A stretch of DNA of 37,400 nt from Theionarchaea archaeon (GTDB lineage: Archaea > Methanobacteriota_B > Thermococci > Methanofastidiosales > SZ-28-30): positions 18,196 to 55,595 of the forward strand of contig JACVGW010000010.1 of the NCBI GenBank assembly GCA_018992565.1, given 5' to 3'. A program made the position numbers and the translations under genes. Each line of letters opens with the position of its first letter. Position 1 is the stretch's first letter. Positions 1-37,124 of this stretch are shown piece after piece. Under the pieces are notes generated by a model that searched no databases, was not told the origin of the DNA, and worked only from the letters and a program-made list of their open reading frames with translations.

Positions 1-726
1 TGTCTCGGGGAAATCGAGGACTATCTCAGAGTCAGAAAACACTTCCTTTTGATACTCCAGGATTTATCAGAATCAATCGCCATTCCTGGATTCTTGAAAA
101 CCAGGGCCTGGCCAGAAGTCTGTCTGAATTCCTACTCCTCATGGGATAGCTATCTGGAATCGCAAAAAGGCAAGAGAGCGAAAAGCATTCGATATGAATA
201 CAGAAAAAGTGTGGACACCGGAACAAAGACGTTCATGGCAGATGATCTGGATCAGTATGGAGATCTACTTTATGACATGTATCTCAATGTATGCGACAAG
301 AATGAGAGCATAGTGAAATATCCCAGAGATTTCTTCAAGAGACTGGAAGATCATCTGTCCCCGTATACGAGGTGCATATTCGCAGAAACCGCCAATGATA
401 TCACAGCATACCTGTTCATTCTGGAGAATGAACACTGGATTTCATGCAAATTCGCAGGACGAACCTACGAGTCTGAAGATCCTTATGTCTATTTTCGGCT
501 CATGTACGAAATGATAAAATACGCTGCTAGCAAGGGAAAACCAATATCAGCAGAAAAGGCAGCTTATCAGGCAAAACTCAGGAGAGGATTCAAGATTGTC
601 CCCAAATTCAGTTACTATCACTCATACTATTCTATAGTTGGAGACATATATCTTAAATTAATCAAGAAGGTAACTGAGTTCAAAAAAATTGATCGAATGG
701 AATTGTTGGAATCGCTTCAGGATTAG
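1..726 (+). CDS. FemAB/GNAT-like acyltransferase, C-terminal part (cut by window edge)
   Basis: The reading frame is open from base 1, so the TTG at 49 is not the start and the N-terminal half lies outside the window. The visible 241 residues match the C-terminal half of the FemAB-like/peptidoglycan-recognition GNAT families. There is a W..YLES segment followed by a basic SIR.E.RKS helix, and near the end an ISAEKAAYQAKLRRGFK segment typical of these enzymes. The family transfers acyl or aminoacyl groups to glycans or other acceptors. The YLES...SIR pattern recurs in the gene at 8075. The gene's TAG stop and the TAA stop of the opposing flippase share bases 724-725. The substrate cannot be told from sequence. 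The family call is fairly secure; a role in envelope decoration is inferred from neighbours. Confidence 0.75.
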   Translation, partial: CLGEIEDYLRVRKHFLLILQDLSESIAIPGFLKTRAWPEVCLNSYSSWDSYLESQKGKRAKSIRYEYRKSVDTGTKTFMADDLDQYGDLLYDMYLNVCDKNESIVKYPRDFFKRLEDHLSPYTRCIFAETANDITAYLFILENEHWISCKFAGRTYESEDPYVYFRLMYEMIKYAASKGKPISAEKAAYQAKLRRGFKIVPKFSYYHSYYSIVGDIYLKLIKKVTEFKKIDRMELLESLQD

Positions 727-2177
727 GGGGGTTCCGGGTCGAAAAGGAATTTGCGTATGTCAATAATCTTGAATGCAACAATGCACAGAACGTAAAATCC
801 CATGCCCAGTCCAGCACCGATAATCATTCTGTTTCGGAATAGTACAGCCATCAGCAGAACGCCCATAGAGACACATGCTATCTTGAAGATATCGGACTTC
901 ACGGGACTGTAATAGGCGAAATCTTTCATTCTTATACTCAAATAGAAAAATTGCACAGACATTGATGCTAATGTGGCGAATGCAGCTCCATTTATTCCCA
1001 TTTTCGGAATGAGATATACGTTAAGTAGTATATTCAAAAGGAGAGCGAATACTGTAATATGCATGGGGACTTTTGGTTTTCCCATTCCCTGGAAGGTGAC
1101 AGAGAATATTGAGCAGAAGGACATGAAGAACATGGCCAGAGAGAGAACCATCAATGCAGTGGATGCTACTGCGTACTCAGCTCCAAAAAAGAGTCTGATC
1201 AATTCCTCAGCATAAATCACAAACAGAATGGTGAGCGGAAACGTCGCACCAGATGTGTATTTGAGAGCATCACAGAGATAGGTGCCGACATATCCCTTTT
1301 CCCTAGCCATGTCTTCAGAGACTGCGGGGAGCAGGGGAAGAGCCACACTTGAAGAGACAGATGTCATGATCCGTGCAATAGGAACTGCTGCATTGTACAG
1401 CCCCGCATCTGTGACTCCCAGGAAGTAGGTAATGCAAAAAATGTCAAAGCTCATCAAAATCATCATAGAAACACTGGTAATCGTCTTGGGAACAGCAAAG
1501 TCAATGAGCTTTCGCAAGAGTTGGAATGACTTTGATCCCGCAGTCAACGAGAGTTTCCCCTTGAACTTTCTCTTGTAAAACATGTATGCAGCTATCAGCC
1601 CCGAGATATCACCAAGGAGAATCCCAATGACTGCTCCTTCAGTACCCATGCCCAGAGATACCAGGACTATGGCAATAACGAGGACCGCCAGGTTATACAC
1701 AAGCAACGAATAGGTGTAGAAAGGAGATTCCTGGTATCCCAGAAATATCCCATCAATAATCAACCAGAGAGCTTCTACAGGCATGACCAGAACCACAATT
1801 CTGATGAGAATACCCAGATCAGGTTCACGGAAAATGGCACCCGCAATGGGGCTGGCCGCTGCAAAGATGATTATAGTGACAATGAGAGAAAGGGGGAAAA
1901 GATAGTACATGGCCGTAGCAAGGTAATCTTGAGCTGTTTTCATGTTTTTCATTGCTATTTCCTCTGACAGGTACTTCGAGAGGGCTGCAGCGAATCCTGT
2001 AAGGGTAAAAGAGGCAGTAATGATGATTACAGGCTCTACTGCGCTAACAAGTCCATATCCCCGCACATCCAGCATTCGAGCCATGCTTATCTTGTAAAAG
2101 TAGCGGACGAACCCTATGGCAAACATGGCCATGAAGACATTAAAGGTATGCCGGGCCAACCTACTACTACGATCCAT
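723..2177 (-). CDS. Polysaccharide flippase (Wzx/MurJ/MATE-like)
   Basis: This 484-residue integral membrane protein has about 12-14 hydrophobic segments across its whole length. Composition, length and pattern fit the polysaccharide-biosynthesis flippases of the MOP superfamily, which move lipid-linked glycans across the membrane. Features seen include an N-terminal R-H-T-F-N-V amphipathic entry helix, a conserved-looking IDGIFLGYQ region, and G.GKP near residue 370. I chose the ATG at 2177 because GGAGGGG lies four bases upstream of it; an in-frame ATG at 2195 has no such site. A TATA-like box at 2313 implies its own promoter and a leader of about 110 bases. It lies downstream of the first CapK-like gene on the same strand, which supports a role in exporting a modified surface glycan. 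The exact cargo is unknown. Confidence 0.85.
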   Translation of the reverse strand: MDRSSRLARHTFNVFMAMFAIGFVRYFYKISMARMLDVRGYGLVSAVEPVIIITASFTLTGFAAALSKYLSEEIAMKNMKTAQDYLATAMYYLFPLSLIVTIIIFAAASPIAGAIFREPDLGILIRIVVLVMPVEALWLIIDGIFLGYQESPFYTYSLLVYNLAVLVIAIVLVSLGMGTEGAVIGILLGDISGLIAAYMFYKRKFKGKLSLTAGSKSFQLLRKLIDFAVPKTITSVSMMILMSFDIFCITYFLGVTDAGLYNAAVPIARIMTSVSSSVALPLLPAVSEDMAREKGYVGTYLCDALKYTSGATFPLTILFVIYAEELIRLFFGAEYAVASTALMVLSLAMFFMSFCSIFSVTFQGMGKPKVPMHITVFALLLNILLNVYLIPKMGINGAAFATLASMSVQFFYLSIRMKDFAYYSPVKSDIFKIACVSMGVLLMAVLFRNRMIIGAGLGMGFYVLCIVAFKIIDIRKFLFDPEPP

Positions 2178-2243
2178 GGAACCCCTCCTTCTCATGGAGT
2201 TCAGGTATTCTTCTGGTTCCTACCGAGCTATTGAGTATCATGA

Positions 2244-2257
2244 GTACACCTGTGTAC
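2244..2257. repeat. Perfect inverted repeat in flippase leader
   Basis: GTACAC and GTGTAC form perfect 6-base arms around a 2-base centre. The repeat sits in the predicted 5' leader of the flippase mRNA, about 70 bases before its start codon. It could be an operator or a small hairpin; a 6-base dyad also occurs by chance. Confidence 0.4.
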
Positions 2258-2312
2258 AGTGACTCTTCTTCTGGAGCTGTGAGGCACCAGATGGTGACAC
2301 TTCCAAGAACCC

Positions 2313-2319
2313 TTTATAA
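2313..2319 (-). promoter_or_regulatory. TATA box for flippase
   Basis: Read on the minus strand this is TTATAAA within an AT-rich stretch. Transcription would start near 2290, leaving a leader of about 110 bases, which is long for this window. Confidence 0.45.
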
Positions 2320-2354
2320 CTTTAACCATTCGTTCTCTCCTTTCTGTGACCTTG

Positions 2355-3641
2355 CTAGTACGTAGCTCGTGAGGATGCGAGATCAACGTTCACGTGGGAG
2401 ATGACTGTTCTGAACTTCCCTCTGCCGGTCTCAGGTATGGAATCCACTCGCTCCAGTTCGACTGTTATTCCTTGGCCCACAGCCTTCCTGATGTTGTCCA
2501 TAAGCTGATTCTCCATGTTCTCAGTGAGTAGTTGGTGAGGTATCAACTGGACTATAATGTAGTCCAGGGTTTTCTGGGTCACTCTGAATTGTCTGATATG
2601 GGGGGTGGAGAAAAAATGTGCAATGAGGCGAGTGGGAGGAATCAACTCCCCAGAAGGAGACACAACAAAATCATCACATCTCCCTTCAATCTCCTTGAGA
2701 ACTGGAAGGGTTCTTCCACACTGACAGACTTCGTCGGAAGGGATTCCGATGTCCTGTAGCCGGTATCTGATAAAGGGCATGGCCCTGTTCCACAAGTTGG
2801 TGACGACGATCTCACCTCGCTCCCCTGGAGCTACTGGTTCCCCATCTTTCAGGAATTCCACAATTCCTCCGTCTGCATCAATATGCATGGTATGGTACTT
2901 ACATTCCCAGGCAATTGAGATCATCTCATACGCCCCGTATTTGTTGTATGTCGGGCACTGGAAGATTTTCTCTATGTAGGTTCGATGCCAGGGTAATGAG
3001 AGTTCTCCCCCCAGCAGGATCATTCTCGGAGTACATGGTAGACCAGTTTTTTCCACTGCGCGGGCCAGAGCCACCATGGCTGAAGGATGTCCTGCCAGAA
3101 TATATGGATATTCTTTTTGCATCTCTTCAACGAGTTCTGTGTCAGGTCGTCCTTCCATGATACCTTGGGTCCGCAGAAGAGACATTTTTTCATACTCCTG
3201 AAATTCCTCTGGATCTCTACAGAGGATGCAGAATTTGTGCCAGGGCCTCACTCCCTGGGCCAGATGAGTTCGCAACGACACTGCTCGCATCCTGGTGGCT
3301 GCATAACGATCATGCAACACTCTGAGTACACTTCCTGAAGCCCCTGAGGTTGACTCTATTACACAGTTCTGTTCAGAAAACCCAGCAGCCACGCTTCTCG
3401 AGGGGTATCCCTCTTTGACCTCGGCCTTGGAGGTAATAGGGATCTTCTTCAAATCATCAAGAGTCCTGATTTCCCCTGGCTTGATGCCAGCATTTCTAAA
3501 TTTCTCTTTGTAGAGACGTGTATTTCTATAGGCAAAATCTGCTATGTATCTCAATCGCTTTTCCTGAAACCTCTTGACGTAGTCCTGAGAAGCGTATTGC
3601 ATTTTGTATGCCAGAGGAACATATGCGAAAGCATTCCACAT
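2355..3641 (-). CDS. CapK/PaaK-like AMP-forming ligase, paralogue 1
   Basis: This is a 428-residue member of the phenylacetate-CoA ligase/CapK/coenzyme F390 synthetase-like adenylate-forming family. The ATP-binding loop reads STSGASGS (TSG.TG in the family), with one Ala in place of Thr. Further on come the NKYGAYEM motif, GEIVVTNLWNRAMPFIRYR...D, the CQCGRTLP Cys pair and a C-terminal GRGKFR, which carries the usual catalytic lysine. These enzymes activate a carboxylate as acyl-AMP. The open frame extends 97 codons further upstream, but the ATG at 3641 has a perfect GGAGGTGA four bases before it. It also gives a length matching the paralogues at 4504 and 5884. Substrate unknown; its place beside a flippase suggests envelope glycan modification. 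Confidence 0.85.
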   Translation of the reverse strand: MWNAFAYVPLAYKMQYASQDYVKRFQEKRLRYIADFAYRNTRLYKEKFRNAGIKPGEIRTLDDLKKIPITSKAEVKEGYPSRSVAAGFSEQNCVIESTSGASGSVLRVLHDRYAATRMRAVSLRTHLAQGVRPWHKFCILCRDPEEFQEYEKMSLLRTQGIMEGRPDTELVEEMQKEYPYILAGHPSAMVALARAVEKTGLPCTPRMILLGGELSLPWHRTYIEKIFQCPTYNKYGAYEMISIAWECKYHTMHIDADGGIVEFLKDGEPVAPGERGEIVVTNLWNRAMPFIRYRLQDIGIPSDEVCQCGRTLPVLKEIEGRCDDFVVSPSGELIPPTRLIAHFFSTPHIRQFRVTQKTLDYIIVQLIPHQLLTENMENQLMDNIRKAVGQGITVELERVDSIPETGRGKFRTVISHVNVDLASSRATY

Positions 3642-4011
3642 GGATTCACCTCCGTGATCGGGCAGCATCAGACCAGGAAAGACTCTCCAGGCTCCCTGGT
3701 TAATACTGCCAGTGATTGCTCCGGTGATTCCCATAGCAGCTAACAGTCTTAATAAGCTTTTCTTCAGTATTCTATACAGCGATACTGGCTGCCCGACCTG
3801 GTAGGAAGAGCCCGATCTGAGAAAGCTACTCTGCACGGAGAGAATCTGTGCAGAGAACGCTGCACGAAAGACAAGAGAATCTTGTGATACGAGAACTGCT
3901 GCAGTAATCTCTGCAGAAGGACACACTATCAATATCCTCTCTTATTGAGGCTACCAGCTTTCTTCTTGAAAAAATACACTCTCCTCACTAGATATCCGCA
4001 AGAAGGAGAAC
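3642..4011. other. Gene-free stretch between divergent units
   Basis: The minus-strand frame of the CapK-like gene stays open to 3932, but nothing in that extension resembles the family N-terminus. It does encode a hydrophobic patch (LLRLLAAMGITGAITGSI), which could be a remnant of a lost upstream gene. A weak TATA-like element on the minus strand lies near 3753. I see no RNA gene or repeat. Confidence 0.4.
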
Positions 4012-4409
4012 ATGGATTATTATTTCATGAAAAAAAAATACACCACAGGACTTACTCTCCTGATTGTCTTTGGGTTGGGTGGATGCTTGGTTTAAGATTT
4101 GTCTGAACATCCCGAAGAATCAAAGGAACCTCCTCAGGACTTTAATGAATGGTTTCAAAGACCTGTCATCCCCTTCACTACTATAGAACATGGAAGTGGG
4201 ATTGAGGATTTAATGCCATTGAAAGACGTGACCTGAGAAGAATAGGAGGCGGAAACCCTCTTACTGATTGGATGCTTGGACCTCATCCTTTCAGGCAAAT
4301 TGCGATAGCATATAACGATTCGAATCCTTCCCAATACTTCTACTACCACCTGGTTCTTTCTGATGGATTTGATGTCATCATATACTTTGAGGATACCTCG
4401 CCAATGTAA
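4012..4409 (+). pseudogene. Decayed lipoprotein gene (stop plus frameshift)
   Basis: AAGGAG at 4003 precedes an ATG at 4012. The first 27 codons encode a lipoprotein signal peptide: M-K-K-K, then a hydrophobic core and the lipobox LGGC. A TAA stop at 4093 falls two codons after the lipobox Cys. Past it the same frame stays open for 46 codons with protein-like content (PEESKEPPQDFNEWF) as far as the TGA at 4234. A +2 frame, open from 4206, then carries convincing coding text (PLTDWMLGPHPF..., DGFDVIIYFED) to a TAA at 4407. Together these look like one lipoprotein of about 125 residues broken by a nonsense codon and a frameshift. Sequencing error is the alternative. No known family recognised. 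Confidence 0.6.
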
Positions 4410-4475
4410 CTTCTCTATCAAGTCTAAACAGCATTCATGACCCAGACTCCTGCACGATGGTGCAGTGGCACAACC

Positions 4476-4482
4476 TTTATTA
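4476..4482 (+). promoter_or_regulatory. TATA box for second CapK-like gene
   Basis: TTTATTA is centred 25 bases before the ATG at 4504, predicting a leaderless transcript. It therefore decides the start codon. Confidence 0.55.
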
Positions 4483-4503
4483 GACATATTCAGAAGTTGT
4501 CAT

Positions 4504-5763
4504 ATGCTGCTCGAAACAGCTCAACTCTTGTGGAAGATCCGAAAGGAACAGTGGCTCTCTCCGGACATACTCGAGGACATTCAACAGGAACGACTGAGAA
4601 AAATGGTCGGCCATGCGTACAAGAATACTCGGTTCTACAGGGACGTATTCAATAGATGTGGGATTACTCCTCAGGACATCAAGACCAAAGAGGACCTTGC
4701 TACTCTCCCCCCTACGACCAAGAGCGACCTTCAGGACAGGTTTAAAGATCTGATTGCTTCAGGTTACTCCACTGAGAATTGCTATGTATACAATACTTCG
4801 GGGTCTACAGGTACTCCCGCTACTGTACTATATGATCCATATACCAAAGCTTATACAGGGGCTGAAGACTATGTCTTCATGTTTGATGTAGGGTACAGAC
4901 CTTGGGAGAAGATTGCCTACACCAAAAGAAAACCCTGGGCATCTCATCCTCTGCAGGCTCTTGGAATCATGCGAGCCTGCCACATACTGTCTTCTCTCCC
5001 TGAAGAAGAACAGGCCCGTCTCCTTCAAGAGATACATCCTTCGCTCATCATTTCATATCCCATTCTCCTGCACTCCATTGCCCGTGCTGCACGTTCTGAA
5101 CACTACACCGTCCATCCACGGGCTGTCATTGTGGGTGGAGAACTGCTCACCCCACAGGTGCGCTCTTTCATTGAGGAGGTCTTGTCCACATCTCTCTATG
5201 AGACATATGCTACAGTTGAATTTGCCACCATAGCCAAAGAGTGCTCCCACCACAACTGGCATATTCACAGCACCCGGTGTTTGGTTGAATTCGTTGAAGG
5301 GAAAATACTGGTAACAGGACTGATCAATAAGGCCCTTCCTCTCCTGCGCTATGAAATCGGTGACATGGGTGCACCCAAGAACGGACTTTGTCCCTGTGGA
5401 CGAGGGTACCCCATGATGCAGATTCTCGAGGGACGACTGGGAGACCTCTTCATTCTCCCCAACGGGAGAGAAATTCCCCCACTCCGCGTATTCAAGACGC
5501 GGCTGATACTGGATAGCAATGTGGCTGCAAAGAGATATCAGATAATCCAGGAGGACTATGACCATTTCATCATTCGCGTCGTCCCCACATCGAATTTCAC
5601 GAAAGCTATAGCCCAGCAATTGAGAGAGCAACTGGTAGAAGACCTGCAGTATCCTGTGAATGTTGAGATTGACGAGGTGGACGAGATCCCCTTGATTGAC
5701 GATCGCAAGCTGAGGGTCAATATCTCTCGTGTCAAGAAGAACCATTGCGAAGATTCCGTATGA
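4504..5763 (+). CDS. CapK/PaaK-like AMP-forming ligase, paralogue 2
   Basis: This is a 419-residue adenylate-forming ligase of the CapK/PaaK family. The N-terminus has the family pattern of a QQERLRKM...HAYKNTRFYRDVF helix. The nucleotide loop is YNTSGSTGTPATV, followed by LYETYATVEF, then LLRYEIGD, the CPCGRGYP Cys pair and GRLGD. The C-terminal catalytic-lysine loop is DDRKLR. A hinge motif is recognisable but GE(I/V)VVT is reduced to GKILVTG, so the protein has drifted. Start choice: the frame opens with a GTG at 4465, but TATA spacing and family alignment favour ATG 4504. The next paralogue follows after 120 bases with its own TATA box. Likely activates a carboxylate used by the acyltransferases downstream; the substrate is unknown. 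Confidence 0.82.
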   Translation: MLLETAQLLWKIRKEQWLSPDILEDIQQERLRKMVGHAYKNTRFYRDVFNRCGITPQDIKTKEDLATLPPTTKSDLQDRFKDLIASGYSTENCYVYNTSGSTGTPATVLYDPYTKAYTGAEDYVFMFDVGYRPWEKIAYTKRKPWASHPLQALGIMRACHILSSLPEEEQARLLQEIHPSLIISYPILLHSIARAARSEHYTVHPRAVIVGGELLTPQVRSFIEEVLSTSLYETYATVEFATIAKECSHHNWHIHSTRCLVEFVEGKILVTGLINKALPLLRYEIGDMGAPKNGLCPCGRGYPMMQILEGRLGDLFILPNGREIPPLRVFKTRLILDSNVAAKRYQIIQEDYDHFIIRVVPTSNFTKAIAQQLREQLVEDLQYPVNVEIDEVDEIPLIDDRKLRVNISRVKKNHCEDSV

Positions 5764-5854
5764 CTGCGACAATGAATGAGATATCAAAGTGACTCAAGGA
5801 GACACCAATAGATTCAAATATGAGAAGACGAGAGACATTCTCAGGAGGACTACA

Positions 5855-5862
5855 CTTATAAG
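5855..5862 (+). promoter_or_regulatory. TATA box for third CapK-like gene
   Basis: The palindrome CTTATAAG is centred about 26 bases before the ATG at 5884. A GGAGG at 5871 also precedes that ATG, so the gene may be read both from its own leaderless transcript and from upstream read-through. Confidence 0.6.
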
Positions 5863-5883
5863 GAACCAATGGGAGGAAATCAA

Positions 5884-7140
5884 ATGCTAATCCGGACAAT
5901 GTATTATCTGCCTCAAGTTCTGGCCAGGGAGTGGAAGACTACAGCCTCCATACAGAGACATTCGCTGGCCGAAGCACGCTCCCTGCTACGAGATGTACTT
6001 CGGACCAATGTATTCTACAAGAAGAAACTGGAACATATTACTATAGAGGAAATACAATCATGTGAAGATTTGTCTGTCATTCCTTTTACAACGAAAGATG
6101 AGTTGAGGAGAGGATTTCCCGATGTAATCTCGAAAGGGTACACTCCCGAGGGCTGTATCCATGAATCAACATCAGGTTCTACAGGTGATGTACTCAACAT
6201 CTACCATGATCCCGCTGCATACAGCTTCTATGATGCAGTATCTCTCAGGGAGTACATGGGGCTGAACTTATGGCCCTGGTATAGAATGTCATACATCAGA
6301 TTCGAGCAACAACCTGCAAGGATATTTGAGTATCTGGGGATTCTCCGTAAGCGCTACATTCCTGTGGCTGTTCCTGCAGAGGAACAGCTCCGTCTGGTGC
6401 AGAATCATAATCCTGACGTTGCCAGTGGGTATCCGTCCTCATTGTACGAAATAGCCCGCCTGTACAGGGAGAACCCTGGTTCACTGAGGCTGAAGATGGT
6501 TCTCTCCAACTCCGAACTGCTTACAGAATCCACAAGGGAGTACCTGGAGTCCACATTCAACTGTCCCGTTTATGATGACTACTCCTCTTTTGAATTACAT
6601 AACATTGGAGCTGAGTGTGCTCTCAAGAGCATGCATATACACATTGACAACAACATTGTGGAAATCATCAAAGACGGGGAACAGGCTGCCCCTGGAGAGG
6701 TTGGAGAGATAGTAGTCACCAATATCAGAAACAGGGCCATGCCTTTCATACGGTACAGGACGGGTGACTACGGCGCACTCGATGAAGAACCCTGCCCCTG
6801 TGGTCGAGGACTGCCAGTGTTCAAGAGCATTGAAGGACGGAAAGATGAGTATCTGGTCTTGCCTTCGGGCGGTCATGTTTCTCCCCGCGTATTCGACCCC
6901 CTGGACCTGATATTTCACCTGTACGTTTCCAAATTTCAGATTATACAGAAGAAGAAGGACGAATTCCTGATAAAAGTGGTTAGAGAAGCGAATTACCATG
7001 ATGATGTGACGAAAACACTTGTAAGAGAAGCAAAGAGGTGTTTTCCAGAGCCCATAGAGGTAGAGGTTATGCCAGTAGAGGACATTTCCAGAACAGGAAG
7101 AGGCAAGTTGCGTGCAGTCCTGTGTGAGGTGAACTCGTGA
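5884..7140 (+). CDS. CapK/PaaK-like AMP-forming ligase, paralogue 3
   Basis: This 418-residue protein is the most canonical of the three ligases. It has an ESTSGSTGDV nucleotide loop, the YDDYSSFE motif and GEIVVTNIRNRAMPFIRYRTGDYG. These are followed by CPCGRGLP, EGRKDEYLVLPSG and a C-terminal GRGKLR carrying the catalytic lysine. It is closer to paralogue 1 than to paralogue 2 in the hinge region. The ATG at 5884 is preferred over the earlier ATG at 5869 because both the SD and the TATA spacing point to it. The stop overlaps the GTG start of the GNAT gene by four bases (GTGA), so the two are translationally coupled. That coupling suggests the activated acyl group is handed to an acyltransferase. 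Confidence 0.85.
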   Translation: MLIRTMYYLPQVLAREWKTTASIQRHSLAEARSLLRDVLRTNVFYKKKLEHITIEEIQSCEDLSVIPFTTKDELRRGFPDVISKGYTPEGCIHESTSGSTGDVLNIYHDPAAYSFYDAVSLREYMGLNLWPWYRMSYIRFEQQPARIFEYLGILRKRYIPVAVPAEEQLRLVQNHNPDVASGYPSSLYEIARLYRENPGSLRLKMVLSNSELLTESTREYLESTFNCPVYDDYSSFELHNIGAECALKSMHIHIDNNIVEIIKDGEQAAPGEVGEIVVTNIRNRAMPFIRYRTGDYGALDEEPCPCGRGLPVFKSIEGRKDEYLVLPSGGHVSPRVFDPLDLIFHLYVSKFQIIQKKKDEFLIKVVREANYHDDVTKTLVREAKRCFPEPIEVEVMPVEDISRTGRGKLRAVLCEVNS

Positions 7141-8078
7141 TTCGGAGGCTTCGTATCTCTGACACGGATCAATTCGTGGACATCTTAAACAACGCCTTTG
7201 GCAGGGAGCTCCACCACATTGGAGGGCAGTATAGAGTGACCAAGAGGAGAATGAAGATCCAGTATCTGGGAATCCGGTTGCTGCAGAAATTATTCGGCGA
7301 TATAAGGAATCTGCAGGACATATTTGCGTACTATGATGGATCCACTGTGTTGGGTATTACCCAGATGGTTCTCATGAATGCACGGGGAGATCACTGGTAC
7401 ACGGAGATGACTGCAGTAAGGGAAAACCTCCAGAAGAAGGGAGTAGGGACTGCTCTGAAGCAGTTTACAGTAAATCACTACATGGGAAGAGCACGGCGAT
7501 TTTTTGGGAACCTCAGGGAAGAAAATGTGGCATCACTGAAAGCAAATACCCGGGCAGGATATATTCCATACGTGAGAAATATCCTGTTTAAGAAGGAACC
7601 ATCCAGCAGACGCGAGAACCGAGAGATTGAAGGGTTCAGGCGCTTCAAAGGAGATGAGAAAGGAGTGTTCGATCTCTATATGAAAACTACTCCTCCTGAA
7701 ATTGTAGAATTGGAGGACAAGACTCCCGAGGACTTCAGTTTGGGAATAATGATGAAACTACTCGGTCTTCTGCATGTGTTCACGGGAGAACACGACAGAC
7801 GGTATGTTATTGAACGTGATGGAATCATCTGTGCTTACTTTTCCTTTGAGCAGCTGTGGTTAACCTATGAGAATCTGGAGTTCATGGTTGATCCTGCCAG
7901 TGGTATATCCAAAGAGGCTGTGAATGATGTTATATCGACAGTCTCTCCTTCGAGCCATATAGTCTGCTATGTCCCTGAATACCGGGAACCGGAGAAGCAG
8001 AGCCTGATTGATGCAGGGTTTGAAGTAGAAGAACCGTACTTGAAGATTGTGCGAGTTTTCGAGGTGGATGAGCAATGA
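7137..8078 (+). CDS. GNAT-family acetyltransferase, two-part
   Basis: This 313-residue protein has an N-terminal GNAT domain. Strand and helix pattern ends in the acetyl-CoA pyrophosphate loop KKGVGTAL (residues 100-107), followed by N.ASLKANTRAGY, the usual final GNAT strand and helix. The second half (from about residue 165) looks like a degenerate GNAT repeat without a clear CoA loop. It starts with GTG inside the stop of the CapK-like gene and its stop overlaps the next ATG (ATGA). It is thus the middle member of a coupled three-gene unit. It may transfer an acyl group from CoA, or from an activated carboxylate, to an amino sugar or peptide. The substrate is not visible. Confidence 0.78.
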   Translation: MIRRLRISDTDQFVDILNNAFGRELHHIGGQYRVTKRRMKIQYLGIRLLQKLFGDIRNLQDIFAYYDGSTVLGITQMVLMNARGDHWYTEMTAVRENLQKKGVGTALKQFTVNHYMGRARRFFGNLREENVASLKANTRAGYIPYVRNILFKKEPSSRRENREIEGFRRFKGDEKGVFDLYMKTTPPEIVELEDKTPEDFSLGIMMKLLGLLHVFTGEHDRRYVIERDGIICAYFSFEQLWLTYENLEFMVDPASGISKEAVNDVISTVSPSSHIVCYVPEYREPEKQSLIDAGFEVEEPYLKIVRVFEVDEQ

Positions 8079-9103
8079 ATGAGGAACCGGAGGTATCAAT
8101 ACACACGACTGTCCGTGATTTTACAGAGGAAGAGTGGAACAGAGTAGCAGACAGTATGTTTCCCGAGTGTTGTCACGGCTGGTACAGGGCTGTGGAAGAC
8201 TCCTGTATGCGGGACATGTATTACGTGGCACTCAGGCAGAAGAATGCTCTGACAGCAGTGCTTGGCTGCTGCCCCTTTGTTGAGAAGCAGTTCGGGATCA
8301 GCATTCCTTTCTTGGAGGTAGGGAGTCCCCTGGGCACTGCATCATCATTCTTTCTGGAGAGCCCTGAACATGTTGCGCTTCTTTTGGGAGGCGTAGAACA
8401 GATTTTAGAGCTGGAAAAGATCAAAGGAATACTGATCTTTGATCTTAAACAAGAAGAAGCCGATCTCATCAAGGGACATCTCAGGGGATTCTCACCGTAC
8501 CACGAACCTGATAGAACATATATTGATCTCGGCTTTTCTGATTTTGAGGACTATCTGGAATCTCTCGATTCCAGCAACAGGAGGAGCATCAGGAAGACTC
8601 TCAACAGGGCTGAAAAGCGGTGGAAAATCAGGCACATTCTTACCAGTGAACTGTCAAAATGGGGAGCCACAGCTCACAGATTACAGGCGTATTTGTGCCA
8701 GGAACACCGTGACTTCCGCATGCATCTCAGTGTGCCGTTCTATGAAGCTCTGGAAAAAAACATGGAGAAATCGGCAGAACTCACCGTATTCCTGAAAGAT
8801 GACATACCTCTGGCAACTGGACTGGTATTGAACTCCCAGGAAGCAGCAGTCCACAAGTTTCCGGGCGTGGATCCTGGATACAGACAGTATCAGGCCTATT
8901 TTCTGCTGTACTACGAGGGGATACGAACAGCCATTGAACGGAAACAGAAGAGAATCTACTTTGGCACCACCACCTATGGCTTTAAGGAGAAGATTGGCTG
9001 TGGAAAAGAGCCACTGCTGGGATTTGTCAAGTTCATGAACCCGGTGGCAACTGGGTTGTTGGGGCATTTTCTCACCTGGAGATCATCGAGGCTGAATCGG
9101 TAG
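8075..9103 (+). CDS. FemAB-like acyltransferase
   Basis: A 342-residue protein with the two-lobed GNAT fold pattern of FemAB-like and BioF2-like enzymes. An N-terminal lobe ends near residue 140. It is followed by a DFEDYLESL...NRRSIRKTLNRAEK helix, and a C-terminal lobe with a DIPLATGL.L strand and KFPGVDPGYR.YQ segment. The final TYGFKEKIG.GKEPL resembles the FemAB end motif in which a lysine or glycine contacts the substrate. Families of this type link amino acids or acyl groups to glycans, often using aminoacyl-tRNA. Translation is coupled to the GNAT upstream through an ATGA overlap. It shares the YLES...SIR signature with the cut gene at 1. Last gene of the unit; 197 bases follow before the next promoter. 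Confidence 0.78.
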   Translation: MNEEPEVSIHTTVRDFTEEEWNRVADSMFPECCHGWYRAVEDSCMRDMYYVALRQKNALTAVLGCCPFVEKQFGISIPFLEVGSPLGTASSFFLESPEHVALLLGGVEQILELEKIKGILIFDLKQEEADLIKGHLRGFSPYHEPDRTYIDLGFSDFEDYLESLDSSNRRSIRKTLNRAEKRWKIRHILTSELSKWGATAHRLQAYLCQEHRDFRMHLSVPFYEALEKNMEKSAELTVFLKDDIPLATGLVLNSQEAAVHKFPGVDPGYRQYQAYFLLYYEGIRTAIERKQKRIYFGTTTYGFKEKIGCGKEPLLGFVKFMNPVATGLLGHFLTWRSSRLNR

Positions 9104-9300: not shown

Positions 9301-10617
9301 GTGACAGAAGAGCTTGCTCCAACAGAGATACTGGAACTGGAACTTCCTCCAGGAATAAGCATCTTGATTGTGGGTCCTCCTGGAAGTGGGAAAACCATTC
9401 TTGCCCAGCAGTTGGTACATCGAGCCTTGGAAAGAGGGAAATCAGCCATTATAATGGCCTCCAAGAGTCAGGTCAATGCGCTGCGCTCACAGGAAAAGCT
9501 ATTTGGATGGGATGTTTCTCAGTACCTCAGCGATGGACGTCTGGGCCTCATGGAAATCGAAAATGTCGGTGATCCATCTGAACTGAACATAGGACTCGCC
9601 CAGATCATACAGGAAGTCACTCCCTCCCTTGCTCTTGTGGTGGTGGATTCTTTGACAGTGCTGATGGTGGCTATGGAAGAGAGGAACATCATGAAGTTCA
9701 CCGAGGGACTGGCAAGAAAACTCCAAGACCACAGTGTCAGCTCGCTGCTCCTGGCTACTCCTACCAAGGAGACGGAGGATTTTCTCACCAAGATGAAATC
9801 TCTGGTGTCTTCCGTCATCGAGATACGATTGACAGAAATTGGGACCATACATAGATATATGCGCATTTTCAAGTTCCTGGACAGAAAGCATTCAACCTTA
9901 TGGTATCCTTTTGAAATTACCAGTGGAGGGATCATGTTTGCAGCTTCTGCGGTAAAGACCCCTGACACGTTTCTCTTTGATCTGGATGGCACACTGGTGA
10001 CCATGGAATTGGATTTTGTGAAGATCAGGAAAGAGGTGGACCGCATTCTTGTTAGATGGGGATATCCACCTGAGCTTCTGGAAGAGACCAGGTCCACCCT
10101 TGAGACTATTCGAGAGGCAGTGTCCTACCTCGACAGTCACAGCCAGGATGGAGAAGGCCTGAAGAAAGAGGCAGAGACATACCTGGAGCAGGTGGAAATG
10201 GAAGCTGCCTCCAGGGCCCAGCTTATTGAGGGAGCAAAAACTGTCCTGCAGATTTTGAAAAAAAAGAAAAAGAAGATAGGGATTATTACCCGGAATCATC
10301 GAGCAGTGGCACTGAAGGTACTCAAGAGATGTGGCCTGGAGCAGTTTGTGGATCTTCTTTTGGCACGAGATGATGTGGAACGGGTCAAGCCCCATCCTGA
10401 CCACATGCTGGAAGCAGTGAGACGCCTGGGATCGGAGCCTGAGAAAACTGTGGTTCTGGGAGATCACCACTACGAGATTGAAGCAGGAAACGAGGCAGGG
10501 TGTTTTACCATTGGTGTTTTGACCGGGTCAGGAACCAGAAAAACCTTAAAAGATGCAGATCTCATCTTGAATTCTGTTGAGGATTTGAAAGAAGTATTCA
10601 GAACCGTGGGACGATGA
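9301..10617 (+). CDS. KaiC-like ATPase fused to HAD phosphatase
   Basis: This 438-residue protein joins two enzyme families. Residues 1-220 are a RecA/KaiC-type ATPase with Walker A GPPGSGKT (25-32) and Walker B VVVDS (113-117). The domain ends in the usual RIFKF...PFEITSGG strand. Residues 224-438 are a HAD-superfamily hydrolase. Motif I is DLDGT (227-231), the motif II region is GIITRN, motif III is the lysine of VKPHPD (362-367), and motif IV is GDHHYE (387-392), where Glu replaces the common second Asp. The HAD part resembles phosphoglycolate phosphatases. Single KaiC domains in archaea often act in regulation, and I know of no established fused form. The leaderless GTG start is set by the TATA box. 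A run of eight A at 10258 lies in the HAD part. The last 20 bases overlap the end of the opposing DUF429 gene. Confidence 0.85.
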   Translation: MTEELAPTEILELELPPGISILIVGPPGSGKTILAQQLVHRALERGKSAIIMASKSQVNALRSQEKLFGWDVSQYLSDGRLGLMEIENVGDPSELNIGLAQIIQEVTPSLALVVVDSLTVLMVAMEERNIMKFTEGLARKLQDHSVSSLLLATPTKETEDFLTKMKSLVSSVIEIRLTEIGTIHRYMRIFKFLDRKHSTLWYPFEITSGGIMFAASAVKTPDTFLFDLDGTLVTMELDFVKIRKEVDRILVRWGYPPELLEETRSTLETIREAVSYLDSHSQDGEGLKKEAETYLEQVEMEAASRAQLIEGAKTVLQILKKKKKKIGIITRNHRAVALKVLKRCGLEQFVDLLLARDDVERVKPHPDHMLEAVRRLGSEPEKTVVLGDHHYEIEAGNEAGCFTIGVLTGSGTRKTLKDADLILNSVEDLKEVFRTVGR

Positions 10618-22822: not shown

Positions 22823-24115
22823 ATGAGTATTGACTGGTACAACGAGTTTGTAGATGTCGACTATACCCCGGCCAGGGATGATCTTGTTGCTCTTTATTAC
22901 TTTGAATCACCTGAAGGAATGACCAAGGAGGAATCTGCGGGAAGGATAGCATCTGAGAGCTCCACTGGAACCTGGACAACTCTGACCAGCCTTCCACCCA
23001 GAATGGAGGCTCTCAAAGCCAAGGCATTTGATATAACAGAAACCTATGTGAAGGTGGCATATCCTCGAGACCTATGGGAAGATGGCAACTTTTGCCAGCT
23101 CAAAAGTGGAATAGCGGGTAACATTTTTGGTATGAAAGGGATCAAGAACTTGCGATTGTTAGACTGCCGATTTCCTCAGGATTACATTAAGTATTTCAAA
23201 GGCCCAATTTTGGGAATAGAGGGACTGAGAAAGATATGGAAAGTGCATAAGAGACCCTTGACTGGAGCTGTTCCCAAGCCCAAAATAGGATTCAGTGCCC
23301 ATGAACATGCGGAAATAGGCTATGAAACCTGGATGGGCGGTTTTGATTTTGTGAAGGATGATGAGAATTTAACGTCCGTGAAGTTCAATAGGTTTGAAGA
23401 AAGAGTCAATCTTCTGGCTAAATACAGAGATAAGGCAGAAAATGAGACTGGGGATCGGAAAGGGGCGTTCATTAATATTACAGCTGAAACAGAGGAAATG
23501 AAACGGAGGGCTGACCTTCTTCATCAGGCTGGATTTGACTACGCCATGATGGATGTTGTGATCGTGGGCACTGCAGCTTTGATGACTATGCGGGAGTATC
23601 TTGGGGACCTGGGAATTGCCATCCACGCGCATCGGGCCATGCATGCAGCCCTGGACAGAAATCCTCGGCATGGAATCACCATGCAGTTCATTGCCAAGGA
23701 GATGCGGCTGATTGGGGTAAACCAGCTGCACTCAGGGACAGCAGTGGGAAAGCTTGTGGGAAGCAGAGAAGAAGTCACCTCCATTGCTGATGTTCTCAGA
23801 GAGAAAGAGACTCCAGCAAGAGAACACATGCTCCTGGGACAGGACTGGGGTTCCATCAGGAGTGCATTCCCCGTGTCATCAGGAGGGCTACATCCAGGAT
23901 TGGTCCCTGATGTCATTGATATTTACGGGCTTGATATGATTTTACTCATCAGTGGAGGGATACATGGTCATCCTCAGGGTACGCGGGCAGGTGCACGAGC
24001 ATCAATGCAAGCTATCGAAGCAACCATGGACGGGGAATCACTGGAGGAGAAAGCCAAGACCTCTCCAGAGCTCAGATCTGCGCTGGACAAATGGGGTCGC
24101 CGCAGGCCGAAATAG
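22823..24115 (+). CDS. rbcL: Form III RuBisCO large subunit
   Basis: This 430-residue protein carries the full catalytic set of RuBisCO. ASESSTGTW (43-51) holds the active-site Glu. PKPK (151-154) has the two lysines. FVKDDEN (176-182) has the carbamylated Lys 178 and the Mg ligands. HAHRAMH (268-274), LHSGTAVGK (302-310) with the loop 6 lysine, SSGG (352-355) and GGIHGHPQG (378-386) complete the site. Length and text fit archaeal form III. It acts in AMP salvage, turning ribulose bisphosphate and CO2 into 3-phosphoglycerate. AMP phosphorylase and ribose-1,5-bisphosphate isomerase, the usual partners, are not in this window. Monocistronic with its own TATA box. Confidence 0.96.
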   Translation: MSIDWYNEFVDVDYTPARDDLVALYYFESPEGMTKEESAGRIASESSTGTWTTLTSLPPRMEALKAKAFDITETYVKVAYPRDLWEDGNFCQLKSGIAGNIFGMKGIKNLRLLDCRFPQDYIKYFKGPILGIEGLRKIWKVHKRPLTGAVPKPKIGFSAHEHAEIGYETWMGGFDFVKDDENLTSVKFNRFEERVNLLAKYRDKAENETGDRKGAFINITAETEEMKRRADLLHQAGFDYAMMDVVIVGTAALMTMREYLGDLGIAIHAHRAMHAALDRNPRHGITMQFIAKEMRLIGVNQLHSGTAVGKLVGSREEVTSIADVLREKETPAREHMLLGQDWGSIRSAFPVSSGGLHPGLVPDVIDIYGLDMILLISGGIHGHPQGTRAGARASMQAIEATMDGESLEEKAKTSPELRSALDKWGRRRPK

Positions 24116-32519: not shown

Positions 32520-32540
32520 TTGCCCCATGAGGTGAACATT

Positions 32541-35500
32541 ATGACCATGAGTTTGAAAGGAAAGGTAGTCATCAGTTCGTTAGCATTCCTTCTTATCGTG
32601 AGTGTAGTTGATATTGGCGCATATGTGGCGGCACCTACCATAAAGTCACCTACTATCGGTGCCACCGGAGTGAGCTGCACCCCTCTTCTCAAGTGGGAAA
32701 CAGTAGTGGTAGCTTCTAGCTACGAATTGCAGCTCTCCAAGTACACCAATTTCAGTGTTAACGTGGTGGAGAAGTCAGTAAACAACAATTATTATCAGGT
32801 TACCAGTACTCTGGATGCCTCTACTAAGTATTACTGGAGGGTGAGAACTATAAGTTATGATGACCTGAGTCTGTGGTCCACTGCTTACTTTACCACGGGT
32901 ACGTGCAGCGGGGAAAGCACAACAACACTTTCTGCCCCTACGCTGGTGTCCCCTGCGAATAACACGTCGTGGACCCAGAATCTGTATCCCACGTTTCAGT
33001 GGCAGGCCGTTACCGGTGCCACTAGTTATACGATTCAGATTTCTCGCAGCACAGATTTCACAAGTACGTACAAAGAAAAAGAGGCCACAGTGTACAATAC
33101 GTATTATATTATTGATACTGCCCTGACCAACTGTTCCAGCTATTATTGGAGGGTGCGGGCTCTAAACAGCGATGGTTCAGGAAGCTGGTCAAGCACATGG
33201 AAGTTTACTATCCTGTTTCCACCCAGCCAGCCCATACTGACCTCTCCTACAAGCGGAGCAGTGGTTACTATTCGCAGGCCAGCCTTCACCTGGGAGAGTT
33301 CTACAGGTGCTACGGCCTATACGATAGAGATTGATGGTGCCACGTACTCTGTGTCTACCACCACCTTCACGCCCTATTCCAATCTCAGTACAGGCGCTCA
33401 CACATGGCGTGTGAGAGCTACAAGTTGTGGTGGCGGTCAGAACAGCGACTGGTCTCAGTCAAGGACCTTTACTATTGACCTGAATGATGTCGTCTTGAAG
33501 AAGCCCGCCAACAACAGCACTGTCACCACTGCTACTCCAACATTTGAGTGGGGGACAGTGGAAGGTGCTACCAAGTACAAGCTGGAGGTGAGAAAATCCA
33601 CAGTTGATGGTACCAAAGTGTTTGAAGTTGAAGTGACAGGTACCTCATTTACTCCCACCGCAATCCTCAATCCCGGTGTCTACATCTGGCGGGTCATGTC
33701 GTATATGAGCGATGCGTGGACAGGTTCCTGGTCCAGCCAGCCCTTCACATTTACCGTTGAAACTGCAGGGGCTCTGACAGCGCCACAGCTTCAGTCACCC
33801 ACCAATGGATCGACAGTGGACTTCCCATTGAATATCCGGTGGTCTTCAGTGACCAGTGCTTACAGCTACACCCTGGAGTATTCCCGTGATACTGATTTTG
33901 ATGATTCAACGTCAGTGACCCTGTACGGAACAGAGTATACTGTCAGCTCTGAACTTGATGAGGGTCGCTGGTACTGGCATGTGAAGGCTAACAATTCCCA
34001 AGGAGATTCAGGTCCCTGGTCTACAACCTGGAGTTTTGAAGTGGGACTTCCCGTTCCTCAACTGACATCTCCGGATAACGGCTCCACCCAGGGAATGTCT
34101 TCAGTCACCTTTGACTGGAGCGATGTGACAGGCTCTCAGATCGAGGGGCAGCTGTACGATCTCAGTTATTACGTACTACAGTATTCTACCAGCAGCACTT
34201 TTGAGAGCCAGAGTACTATCAGCATCAGCAGTTCTGGTGGCTCCCCACTGAGAGAGTCACGCTATGGTCCCATAAATCTTGGGGATGGCACATACCACTG
34301 GAGAGTCATGGCAGTTTATGTCAAGTATCCTGAAGGGACGCTCCGAGAAGGCTCATGGTCTACTGCGTATTCGTTCACCATATCTACAGGGGGATCAAGC
34401 GTTCCTACGCTAGTCTCACCGATTGCGGGCTCAATCATGAAAGGTACCAGAGTCACGCTGGCCTGGAGTCCCATAGAGAGCACAGGTATTACTGGCTATG
34501 TTCTGGTGTACATGAAAGGGTCAAGTACTAACCCGGGCAACCCATCCCAGTGGACTTCAGGTTCTTACACTGAAGTCATCATTACGGGACAGGCAACATC
34601 TTCGTATTCAGTGACCCTGGAGGAGAACACGCAGGACAAACCCTACTACTGGTGGGCTATAGCCACAGTCAATAGCAGTGGCCAGAAAGGGACTTTTCCG
34701 TCTCCCATCAACTTTTCAATTGATAATACTCCCCCCAGTATCTCTACAGTAGAATTGGTTCAGCCAGTTAATACTACACTGGCTATCAGAATCCCCACTT
34801 TCACGTGGAGAATACCGCTTACTAGTTATCAGGATGTGTCAAGCTGGACGCTGGAATATGCCAGTGACACCCAGCTCCAGGAGAATAGAAGAACAATCTC
34901 CGGATTGACCAACCTTTCCACGATTATCTCGGGAGACAAGGCTTCCATCTCGTATACCTTGCCCTCTTCTCAGGCCCTAACCAACGGAACATGGTACTGG
35001 CACATATCTGCTGCAGACCCAGCGGGAAATGTTTCTACCTTTACTGCAGTCGTCAGTTTCGTGGTTAATGCAGGAGAAGAAGAGCCGGCAAAGGTCGCTC
35101 TGGTTTCACCTCCCAACGGATTTGAGGATACTCCCAGCAGACCAACCTTTTCGTGGCTTCAAGTTCAGGGTGCCACCACCTATCACTTGCAGGTAGATGG
35201 TAATAGCAACTTTTCGAGCCCGGAAATTGATCAGGAGAACCTTACGACCACCTCCTTTATGGCTACTTCAGAACTGGAATCGGGTACATACTACTGGCGC
35301 GTGAACTCTAACGCGCCCAATCCAGAGTGGTCGGATGTATGGTCGTTCGAAATTACTGGGGAAGCTCCCCCGCAGGTAGTCCTCCTTTCGCCCAGCAGCG
35401 GTGCTCAGAACATGCCTCCTACTCCTGTATTCCAGTGGCAATCTCTGGAAGGAGCCAGCACCTACACTCTGGAAGTATCTACTACCACCAGCTTTTCCAC

Positions 35501-37124
35501 TACCCTGGTGAATAAGTCAGGATTGACCACAACCACCTGGGGGACTGCATCAGACTGGGAAGCAAACACTCCTTCAGAACTGGAGTCAGGTACATACTAC
35601 TGGAGAGTCTCCTCAAATCTTTCCCAGACAACATCTGCGATCTGGAACTTCACTGTTCCTGGAGAAGAAGGAGGTGGAACCATCACGTATACAGTCGTGC
35701 TGTCTGACTTGAATGGTGATCCCGTCTCAGGCGCAAGTGTGACTCTTAGCAAAGACAATGAGACAGTGGGAACAACAACCACTGATACTTCCGGAAGAGC
35801 AGTCATTGGTGATCTTGAAAGCGGAACCTACACTGTGGCGATAACAGCTTCCGGCTATTCTGGCTATTCAGAGACCATCAGTCTTTCCTCAAGCACTACC
35901 AAGAACGTCACTCTGTATCGGGGTGCTGTGATCCATGGATATGTGTACTATGACAACACACAGAATCCTGCAGCTAATGTGGCAGTAAGAATCTATGACA
36001 CTGAAACCCAGCTGCAAGTTGTCTCCGATATAACTGATACCAGCGGGTACTTCGCTGTGGACAACATTACAGACAACAAGACGTACTACATCATTGTAGA
36101 GAACTACGAAGACCAGAAGAAACAGGGAATTGTCCCCGTAGATGCCCCCACCACAGCCAATGCCCTGACCATCATTGTGAAGACCGAAGGGGAAATTATC
36201 GGAGTGATCCAGGATGAGGAGGGAGCTCCTCTTCCCGGTGCGAAGATTACCCTGCGGGACAGCCAGGGCCAGTTTGTCAACAGCACTTCATCCAGCAATA
36301 TTGGATCCTTCAACTTCAAGGTCACACCTGGACAGTTCTACGTAGAGGTAACCCTGCCGGGGTACGAAGATTACAGGGGTGATCTATTCACCGTGGAGTA
36401 CAAAGAAGTGGAAGATTTGGGGCTGATCACGTTGTTGTCCAAGACAGGAAGTCTGGTGATTAATGTACAGAGCTCGGAAGGAATGCCTCTTGAGGCCACG
36501 ATTACAGTCAAGGATGAAGCGGGGAATATTGTCGACAGTTTCTCTGTTTCAGGAACAAGCTCTGTTGAGGTTTCAGTGGGAACCTATACACTGGAAGCAA
36601 CTGCAGAAGGGTATGAAGCCCAGATGGTCAGCAACATTACCATAGAATCTGGGACCACTGTGTCTCAGGATTTTGTGCTCAGCCCAGCAGCAGGGTCCAT
36701 CAAGGTGTACGTTACAGATATTGCGGGAATGCCTCTTGTTGACACTGAAGTATTTCTGGACGGAGAGTCAGTTGGAACAACGGATGATGCAGGAACACTG
36801 GTTGTCGGAGATGTTTCTCCTGAGGAACACACTATCAGTGTACACAAGGAAGGATACGTTGACCACAAAGAGATACAGACCCTCAATCCGGGTGAGAGCC
36901 TGATTCTGGAGCTGGCATTGGATGAAGCAGGGCTACCATTAACGTATGTGGTTATCCCTATTGTAATTGCTGCTCTGGGAGGGGCTATCTACTACTTCAT
37001 GAAGAGCCGGGGCGGTGAGCCTACCATGAAGGAGAGAAAACCCTCATCAGCGAGAGAAAAGACCAGAATTCCCACCGGCGTACGGAAAGAAGGACTTCCT
37101 CGAAGATCATTCAGGGGAAGATAA
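32541..37124 (+). CDS. Large surface protein with Fn3-like and carboxypeptidase-regulatory-like repeats
   Basis: A 1,527-residue protein. The signal peptide is about residues 1-31. About ten Fn3-like domains follow, each of roughly 90-115 residues. Each has P.L.SP..G at the start, F.W at the B strand and YYWRV or TWRV near its end. From about residue 1055 there are five carboxypeptidase-regulatory-like (PEGA/CarboxypepD) repeats, with GD..SGASVTL, GAPLPGAKITL and DTEVFLDG text. The C-terminus has one transmembrane helix (VVIPIVIAALGGAIYYF) and a basic tail of about 45 residues. It fits a cell-surface or S-layer-associated adhesin. Start: GAGGTGA lies five bases before ATG 32541, whereas the frame's first codon, TTG 32520, has no such site. 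A T-rich terminator follows. Confidence 0.88.
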   Translation: MTMSLKGKVVISSLAFLLIVSVVDIGAYVAAPTIKSPTIGATGVSCTPLLKWETVVVASSYELQLSKYTNFSVNVVEKSVNNNYYQVTSTLDASTKYYWRVRTISYDDLSLWSTAYFTTGTCSGESTTTLSAPTLVSPANNTSWTQNLYPTFQWQAVTGATSYTIQISRSTDFTSTYKEKEATVYNTYYIIDTALTNCSSYYWRVRALNSDGSGSWSSTWKFTILFPPSQPILTSPTSGAVVTIRRPAFTWESSTGATAYTIEIDGATYSVSTTTFTPYSNLSTGAHTWRVRATSCGGGQNSDWSQSRTFTIDLNDVVLKKPANNSTVTTATPTFEWGTVEGATKYKLEVRKSTVDGTKVFEVEVTGTSFTPTAILNPGVYIWRVMSYMSDAWTGSWSSQPFTFTVETAGALTAPQLQSPTNGSTVDFPLNIRWSSVTSAYSYTLEYSRDTDFDDSTSVTLYGTEYTVSSELDEGRWYWHVKANNSQGDSGPWSTTWSFEVGLPVPQLTSPDNGSTQGMSSVTFDWSDVTGSQIEGQLYDLSYYVLQYSTSSTFESQSTISISSSGGSPLRESRYGPINLGDGTYHWRVMAVYVKYPEGTLREGSWSTAYSFTISTGGSSVPTLVSPIAGSIMKGTRVTLAWSPIESTGITGYVLVYMKGSSTNPGNPSQWTSGSYTEVIITGQATSSYSVTLEENTQDKPYYWWAIATVNSSGQKGTFPSPINFSIDNTPPSISTVELVQPVNTTLAIRIPTFTWRIPLTSYQDVSSWTLEYASDTQLQENRRTISGLTNLSTIISGDKASISYTLPSSQALTNGTWYWHISAADPAGNVSTFTAVVSFVVNAGEEEPAKVALVSPPNGFEDTPSRPTFSWLQVQGATTYHLQVDGNSNFSSPEIDQENLTTTSFMATSELESGTYYWRVNSNAPNPEWSDVWSFEITGEAPPQVVLLSPSSGAQNMPPTPVFQWQSLEGASTYTLEVSTTTSFSTTLVNKSGLTTTTWGTASDWEANTPSELESGTYYWRVSSNLSQTTSAIWNFTVPGEEGGGTITYTVVLSDLNGDPVSGASVTLSKDNETVGTTTTDTSGRAVIGDLESGTYTVAITASGYSGYSETISLSSSTTKNVTLYRGAVIHGYVYYDNTQNPAANVAVRIYDTETQLQVVSDITDTSGYFAVDNITDNKTYYIIVENYEDQKKQGIVPVDAPTTANALTIIVKTEGEIIGVIQDEEGAPLPGAKITLRDSQGQFVNSTSSSNIGSFNFKVTPGQFYVEVTLPGYEDYRGDLFTVEYKEVEDLGLITLLSKTGSLVINVQSSEGMPLEATITVKDEAGNIVDSFSVSGTSSVEVSVGTYTLEATAEGYEAQMVSNITIESGTTVSQDFVLSPAAGSIKVYVTDIAGMPLVDTEVFLDGESVGTTDDAGTLVVGDVSPEEHTISVHKEGYVDHKEIQTLNPGESLILELALDEAGLPLTYVVIPIVIAALGGAIYYFMKSRGGEPTMKERKPSSAREKTRIPTGVRKEGLPRRSFRGR

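What the first reader, a model, noticed from the sequence alone, without database searches (positions are those of the whole stretch)
1..9103. Candidate envelope acylation/aminoacylation system built on three CapK-like ligases
Three paralogous CapK/PaaK-like adenylate-forming ligases lie with a flippase, two FemAB-like acyltransferases and a GNAT. Ligase 3, GNAT and FemAB-like genes are stop/start coupled. Seen: the motifs and the coupling. Known: CapK-like proteins occur in capsule loci, and FemAB-like enzymes attach amino acids or acyl groups. Inferred: the ligases activate distinct carboxylates that the acyltransferases attach to a lipid-linked surface glycan, which is then flipped. I know of no described archaeal system of this exact make-up.
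Basis: partly seen in the sequence, partly recalled or inferred. Interest (0 to 1): 0.65.

Follow-up and report, generated by a model that had tools for sequence, protein, structure and literature searches.

The report
Archaeal surface-sugar decoration gene cluster
A sediment archaeon carries a conserved block of genes that probably activates small acids and attaches them, together with amino acids, to a sugar chain destined for the cell surface; similar gene sets are known from bacterial capsule loci, so this is an unusual archaeal variant rather than a new kind of system.

Summary
Window 1-9103 encodes, in order, a FemAB-like protein (5' end lost in an assembly gap), a MOP-type flippase, three CapK/PaaK-like ligases, a GNAT and a second FemAB-like protein. 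Ligase 3, GNAT and FemAB2 overlap by 4 bp, and the block is conserved gene for gene in a second Theionarchaea species (74-85% identity, dN/dS 0.07-0.14). The ligases group apart from catabolic PaaK with full support and lack its YGxFTGG motif. They belong to a family expansion (11 copies in this genome) restricted, with the FemAB and GNAT families, to 2 of 115 genomes of the phylum. A second locus joins three ligases to four FemAB paralogues, a glycosyltransferase and an exosortase-type polysaccharide deacetylase. Envelope-glycan decoration is the best reading, but a single chain from ligase to FemAB is not shown. The GNAT keeps a CoA-binding motif and no acyl-carrier protein was found, which points to ligase, acyl-CoA, GNAT. 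FemAB2 lacks that motif and folds like FemX, which uses aminoacyl-tRNA. CapK, FemAB, deacetylase and flippase already occur together in bacterial exopolysaccharide loci such as that of Rubrivivax. Verdict: new variant of a known kind.

The parts
1..726 (+). FemAB-like acyl/aminoacyltransferase 1, 5'-truncated by an assembly gap (241 of about 358 aa)
   Evidence: PF04339 E 3.6e-10; N run before window base 1; full-length homologue L013:5724-6800
723..2195 (-). MOP-superfamily lipid-linked glycan flippase (Polysacc_synt/MurJ/SpoVB-like), 490 aa
   Evidence: PF13440 4e-25, PF01943 3e-21, PF03023 2e-16; 85% identity in L013
2355..3641 (-). CapK/PaaK-like adenylate-forming ligase 1 (class I), about 428 aa; upstream ORF extension to 3932 unlikely to be coding
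   Evidence: NCBIfam 2e-36; start from alignment A1 and an upstream GGAGGTG; dN/dS 0.08; class I clade 100/100
3642..4503 (.). divergent intergenic region between ligases 1 and 2, with a stop-interrupted lipoprotein-like remnant
   Evidence: translation; about 250 bp in L013
4504..5763 (+). CapK/PaaK-like ligase 2, 419 aa, most divergent paralogue, found only in locus A
   Evidence: NCBIfam 1e-33; tree; 83% identity in L013
5884..7140 (+). CapK/PaaK-like ligase 3, 418 aa
   Evidence: NCBIfam 9e-44; tree
7137..8078 (+). GNAT acyltransferase, 313 aa, CoA-binding motif QKKGVG at residue 99; start overlaps ligase 3 stop
   Evidence: PF00583 2e-6; motif; only 2 of 115 genomes of the phylum
8075..9103 (+). 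FemAB-like transferase 2, 342 aa, FemX-type tandem-GNAT fold, K304 invariant in all aligned homologues; start overlaps GNAT stop
   Evidence: PF04339 2e-14, PF13480 3e-12; model pLDDT 88, best PDB match FemX E 1.5e-14; four paralogues in locus B

Best explanation
The block is an envelope-glycan decoration module. CapK-side ligases adenylate small carboxylic acids and load them on CoA; the coupled GNAT transfers the acyl group to an amine or hydroxyl of a lipid-linked glycan on the cytoplasmic side. The two FemX-fold proteins add amino acids (or other acyl groups) to the same precursor, more likely from aminoacyl-tRNA than from the ligases. The flippase exports the product. Shown: gene content, conservation, 4-bp couplings, separation of the ligases from catabolic PaaK, motifs, FemX fold, second locus. 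Inferred: substrates, CoA as acceptor, glycan as target, tRNA as donor, export.
For: Ligases separate from catabolic PaaK (100/100) and lack its YGxFTGG motif. Single CapK relatives sit in glycosyltransferase, flippase or deacetylase loci of Methanosarcina, Methanohalobium, Sphingobium and Pseudoalteromonas. Locus B pairs ligases with FemAB paralogues, a glycosyltransferase and an XrtA-type deacetylase. GNAT has Q-x-x-G-x-G. No PP-binding carrier protein in the genome, while the same model rings in 11 of 14 control genomes. FemAB2 fold matches FemX, Sbb17 and MprF/A-PGS. All genes are under purifying selection.
Against: No glycosyltransferase or sugar-nucleotide gene in locus A. GNAT assignment rests on a weak domain match and its structure model failed. 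Three of five ligase loci show no FemAB gene nearby. Fold similarity does not fix the donor: tandem GNATs that use acyl-CoA share it. The genome is 88% complete, so a carrier protein could be missing.
Confidence: 0.5

Rival explanations
1. One reading: the ligase products (acyl-AMP or acyl-CoA) are themselves the donors for the FemAB-like enzymes, each ligase serving one transferase on the glycan.
For: Ligase 3, GNAT and FemAB2 are translationally coupled; ligases and FemAB recur in locus B.
Against: FemAB2 has no CoA-binding motif and its best structural matches use aminoacyl-tRNA; numbers do not pair (3 ligases with 2 FemAB in locus A, 3 with 4 in locus B); other ligase loci show no FemAB.
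Confidence: 0.15
2. A small-molecule pathway: the ligases and transferases build an acylated amino compound or peptide that the MOP protein exports.
For: FemX-fold enzymes build peptide natural products (PMC12945691); PaaK-like AjiA1 is among the solved matches; locus A has no glycosyltransferase.
Against: The exporter matches polysaccharide flippase and MurJ models better than MatE; no carrier protein found in the genome; locus B holds a glycosyltransferase and deacetylase.
Confidence: 0.15
3. Catabolic aryl- or fatty-acid CoA ligases beside unrelated transferases.
For: Same superfamily; NCBIfam PaaK models hit; some relatives sit in acyl-CoA degradation operons.
Against: Catabolic PaaK form a separate 100/100 clade; YGxFTGG motif absent in all 18 ligases of this genus; no beta-oxidation or symporter/ACT neighbours as seen for PaaK in the same order.
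Confidence: 0.05
4. Independent surface and housekeeping genes gathered without a joint pathway.
For: Ligase pairs also occur away from any FemAB or glycan gene on C79 and C113; divergent and convergent gene orientations within locus A.
Against: 4-bp overlaps conserved between species; complete synteny; FemAB-ligase proximity repeated at two loci, p about 0.005.
Confidence: 0.12

Closest known systems
Rubrivivax gelatinosus EPS cluster 1 (PEP-CTERM/EpsH-type exopolysaccharide locus, PMC3684757)
   Same: One locus with an XrtA-type polysaccharide deacetylase, adjacent FemAB-related protein, CapK and wzx flippase; capK was among the genes hit in a biofilm screen
   Different: Bacterial, 63 genes, one CapK and one FemAB listed; here three ligases, a coupled GNAT, no glycosyltransferase in locus A, and an archaeal host
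Caulobacter holdfast modification by HfsK (FemX-like tandem GNAT) and HfsH deacetylase (PMC5362036, PMC8449245)
   Same: FemX-fold transferase proposed to acylate amines of a lipid-linked polysaccharide exposed by a deacetylase before flipping
   Different: No CapK ligase mentioned in the passages read; HfsK donor and acceptor also unproven
CapK-like 'phenylacetate-CoA ligase family' genes in archaeal glycan loci (Methanosarcina and Methanohalobium plasmids)
   Same: Closest ligases outside the genus among those compared (430 and 347 bits); flippase-like and glycosyltransferase neighbours
   Different: A single ligase, no FemAB match at E 1e-3
FemX/FemABX aminoacyl-tRNA transferases and Orf11/DhpH-type natural-product relatives
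   Same: Tandem GNAT fold; Phe-Lys pair at a similar place in the sequence
   Different: 13% identity; substrates are peptidoglycan or antibiotics; equivalence of the lysine not superposed here
Catabolic PaaK phenylacetate-CoA ligase
   Same: Adenylation motifs, CxCGR, solved homologues
   Different: Separate clade, YGxFTGG motif missing in the window ligases, different neighbours

Membership tests
PaaK/CapK (COG1541-type) adenylate-forming ligases | P-loop TSGxxG, CxCGR, GRxDD and C-terminal lysine | tested here: met
   Present in ligases 1-3, with GRLGD in ligase 2 and GRKDE in ligase 3 in place of GRxDD; lysine present in all three
Catabolic PaaK (phenylacetate-CoA ligase) | Clade membership and YGxFTGG motif | tested here: not met
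   Outside the 100/100 PaaK clade; motif absent; equivalog cut-offs not reached
CapK-like EPS/capsule ligases | Grouping with ligases of glycan loci | tested here: inconclusive
   100/100 split in the first tree, but weakly resolved base once long rows are removed
FemABX / FemAB_like | Profile match and tandem-GNAT FemX fold | tested here: met
   PF04339 and PF13480 above cut-off, PF02388 28.3 vs 24 bits; FemX top structural match
FemABX / FemAB_like | Aminoacyl-tRNA as donor | not testable with these tools
   Needs biochemistry; only fold and a conserved lysine are known
GNAT acyl-CoA transferases | Q/R-x-x-G-x-G/A CoA motif | tested here: met
   QKKGVG at residue 99, PF00583 28.6 vs 20.7 bits
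XrtA/PEP-CTERM EPS system | Exosortase with PEP-CTERM targets | not tested
   Only matches far below cut-off to its FemAB and deacetylase models; exosortase not searched
MOP flippase (Wzx/MurJ) | Polysacc_synt/MurJ profile above cut-off | tested here: met
   PF13440, PF01943, PF03023 above cut-off

The most novel reading that the evidence does not exclude
Theionarchaea of this genus have turned a capsule-type acid-activating ligase into a multi-copy unit: every multi-ligase locus (four of four) holds one class I ligase beside at least one other ligase, so two ligases may act together or successively to make a combinatorially decorated archaeal surface glycan bearing both acyl and aminoacyl groups, a chemistry I know of no description for in this lineage.
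Probability: 0.2. Interest if true: 0.6.

Novelty: new variant of a known kind. Interest (0 to 1): 0.38.

Why it matters
Little is known about the cell surface of uncultured Theionarchaea. If right, this locus shows a bacterial-style EPS decoration logic (acid activation plus FemX-type amino acid transfer) inside an archaeon and gives a testable set of soluble enzymes for it.

Tried and rejected
GNAT structure prediction from two sequences failed (pLDDT 34) and was not used. Search for solved relatives of FemAB2 and GNAT by sequence gave none. Plasmid search with FemAB2 gave only weak hits; the one neighbourhood read was not a glycan locus of this type. A locus-B 242-252 aa protein that starts like a GNAT could not be linked to the window GNAT or FemAB by profile comparison. 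Defence-system link: no PADLOC hit for ligases 1 and 2, GNAT or FemAB2. A carrier-protein route was set aside for lack of a PP-binding gene. The paper search for archaellin threonine addition found nothing.

Full report
WHERE IT IS. The window is part of contig C21 of a 2.8 Mb, 154-contig archaeal genome. The only relative found in the genome collection scan is the MAG Theionarchaea archaeon SZ_20-22.3 (L013); its coordinates match G015, a second species of the same genus. The window starts directly after a run of about 100 N, so its first gene is cut.

OBSERVATION. The seven genes are as described, with start corrections for the three ligases. The layout is FemAB1 (+), flippase (-), ligase 1 (-), then ligase 2, ligase 3, GNAT, FemAB2 (all +). 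Ligase 3/GNAT and GNAT/FemAB2 share 4 bases, also in L013. L013 has the same genes in the same order and orientation at 74-85% identity, and the neighbours beyond are syntenic too. dN/dS is 0.07-0.14 for the seven genes, close to that of the neighbours (0.08-0.10). These are selected genes. Synonymous sites are near saturation, so the ratios are rough.

LIGASES. The genome has 11 strong family members. G015 has 8, and other members of the order have only weaker, PaaK-type proteins (about 110-235 bits), several of them next to a sodium symporter and an ACT protein (the neighbour names are my reading of the sequences, by comparison with the annotated locus). In a tree of 38 ligases the 18 full-length members of this genus form one group (90/86), and a 100/100 branch separates them and the ligases of glycan loci from a side that holds the PaaK and acyl-CoA degradation ligases. 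With long rows removed the PaaK clade stays at 100/100, but the base of the remaining part is unresolved. The YGxFTGG motif occurs in the haloarchaeal PaaK and most PaaK/ACT proteins and in none of the 18. The adenylation motifs and the C-terminal lysine are kept in ligases 1-3; the lysine is replaced in two paralogues at other loci (C113_b, C79_b). Class I (ligase 1 and kin, nine sequences) is a firm clade (100/100). The ligase 3 group is not firm (47/62). Each of the four multi-ligase loci holds one class I member and at least one other.

SECOND LOCUS. On C68 (L016), and with two fewer FemAB copies on G015:C12 (L066), lie a GT2 glycosyltransferase, four FemAB2 paralogues (43-49% identical to FemAB2 over the alignment), a polysaccharide deacetylase closest to the XrtA/PEP-CTERM type (E 2e-20, below its cut-off), a methyltransferase, a conserved membrane protein, and then ligases running to the contig end. 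Random placement gives p about 0.005 for two of four FemAB loci lying within 6 kb of one of five ligase loci; this treats loci as points and is only a guide. Ligase pairs on C113 and C79 (the latter matching G015:C25) show no FemAB but sit at contig ends; the single ligase on C138 and G015:C8 has none on either side.

TRANSFERASES. FemAB2 was modelled with pLDDT 88. The best solved matches are FemX, the streptothricin-type enzyme Sbb17, FemA, and A-PGS/MprF, all known or titled as aminoacyl-tRNA-dependent; acyl-CoA-using GNATs follow. It has no Q/R-x-x-G-x-G/A motif. Its K304 is invariant in the seven aligned homologues, and in FemAB2 it follows F303; FemX uses Lys305, and DhpH-C uses Lys329 next to Phe328 (PMC12945691), but I did not superpose the structures. 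The GNAT keeps QKKGVG. No PP-binding domain was found in the genome. Hence the preferred split: ligase to CoA to GNAT on one side, aminoacyl-tRNA to FemAB on the other, both acting before the flippase. The split is inference.

DISTRIBUTION. The FemAB family and the GNAT are found in 2 of 115 genomes of the phylum. Beyond the phylum only plasmid records could be surveyed. There, CapK relatives stand in glycan loci of Methanosarcina, Methanohalobium, Roseobacter, Sphingobium and Pseudoalteromonas, and in acyl-CoA degradation operons of other bacteria.

KNOWN SYSTEMS. Rubrivivax gelatinosus EPS cluster 1 holds deacetylase, FemAB, CapK and wzx genes (PMC3684757). HfsK and HfsH in Caulobacter holdfast are the nearest functional precedent for a FemX-like protein working with a deacetylase (PMC5362036); in Hirschia baltica loss of HfsK had no holdfast effect (PMC8449245). 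The archaeal block is therefore a variant of a known bacterial logic, with ligase amplification, the coupled GNAT and lineage restriction as its own features.

VERDICT. Observation confirmed, interpretation partly supported, new variant of a known kind, interest 0.38.

Noticed in passing
window 9301-10617: KaiC-type ATPase domain fused to a HAD phosphatase domain in one 438 aa protein, 89% identical in L013; its role is unclear.
   Followed up: partly
window 3642-4503: Divergent gap between ligases 1 and 2 is about 860 bp against about 250 bp in L013 and holds a stop-interrupted lipoprotein-like remnant.
   Followed up: partly
L016, L017, L018, L066, L068: Ligase clusters sit at contig ends in both genomes, as if the paralogues break assemblies, so neighbour genes are visible on one side only.
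   Followed up: no
L017:18086-19366 and L018:17805-19103: Two ligase paralogues have RHNRPRP where others have the C-terminal catalytic lysine, so they may not adenylate.
   Followed up: no
window 22823-24115: RuBisCO large-chain homologue (PF00016 and PF02788 well above cut-off).
   Followed up: no
window 32520-37124: 1534 aa protein with repeated carboxypeptidase-regulatory-like and Ig-like domains, probably a surface protein.
   Followed up: no
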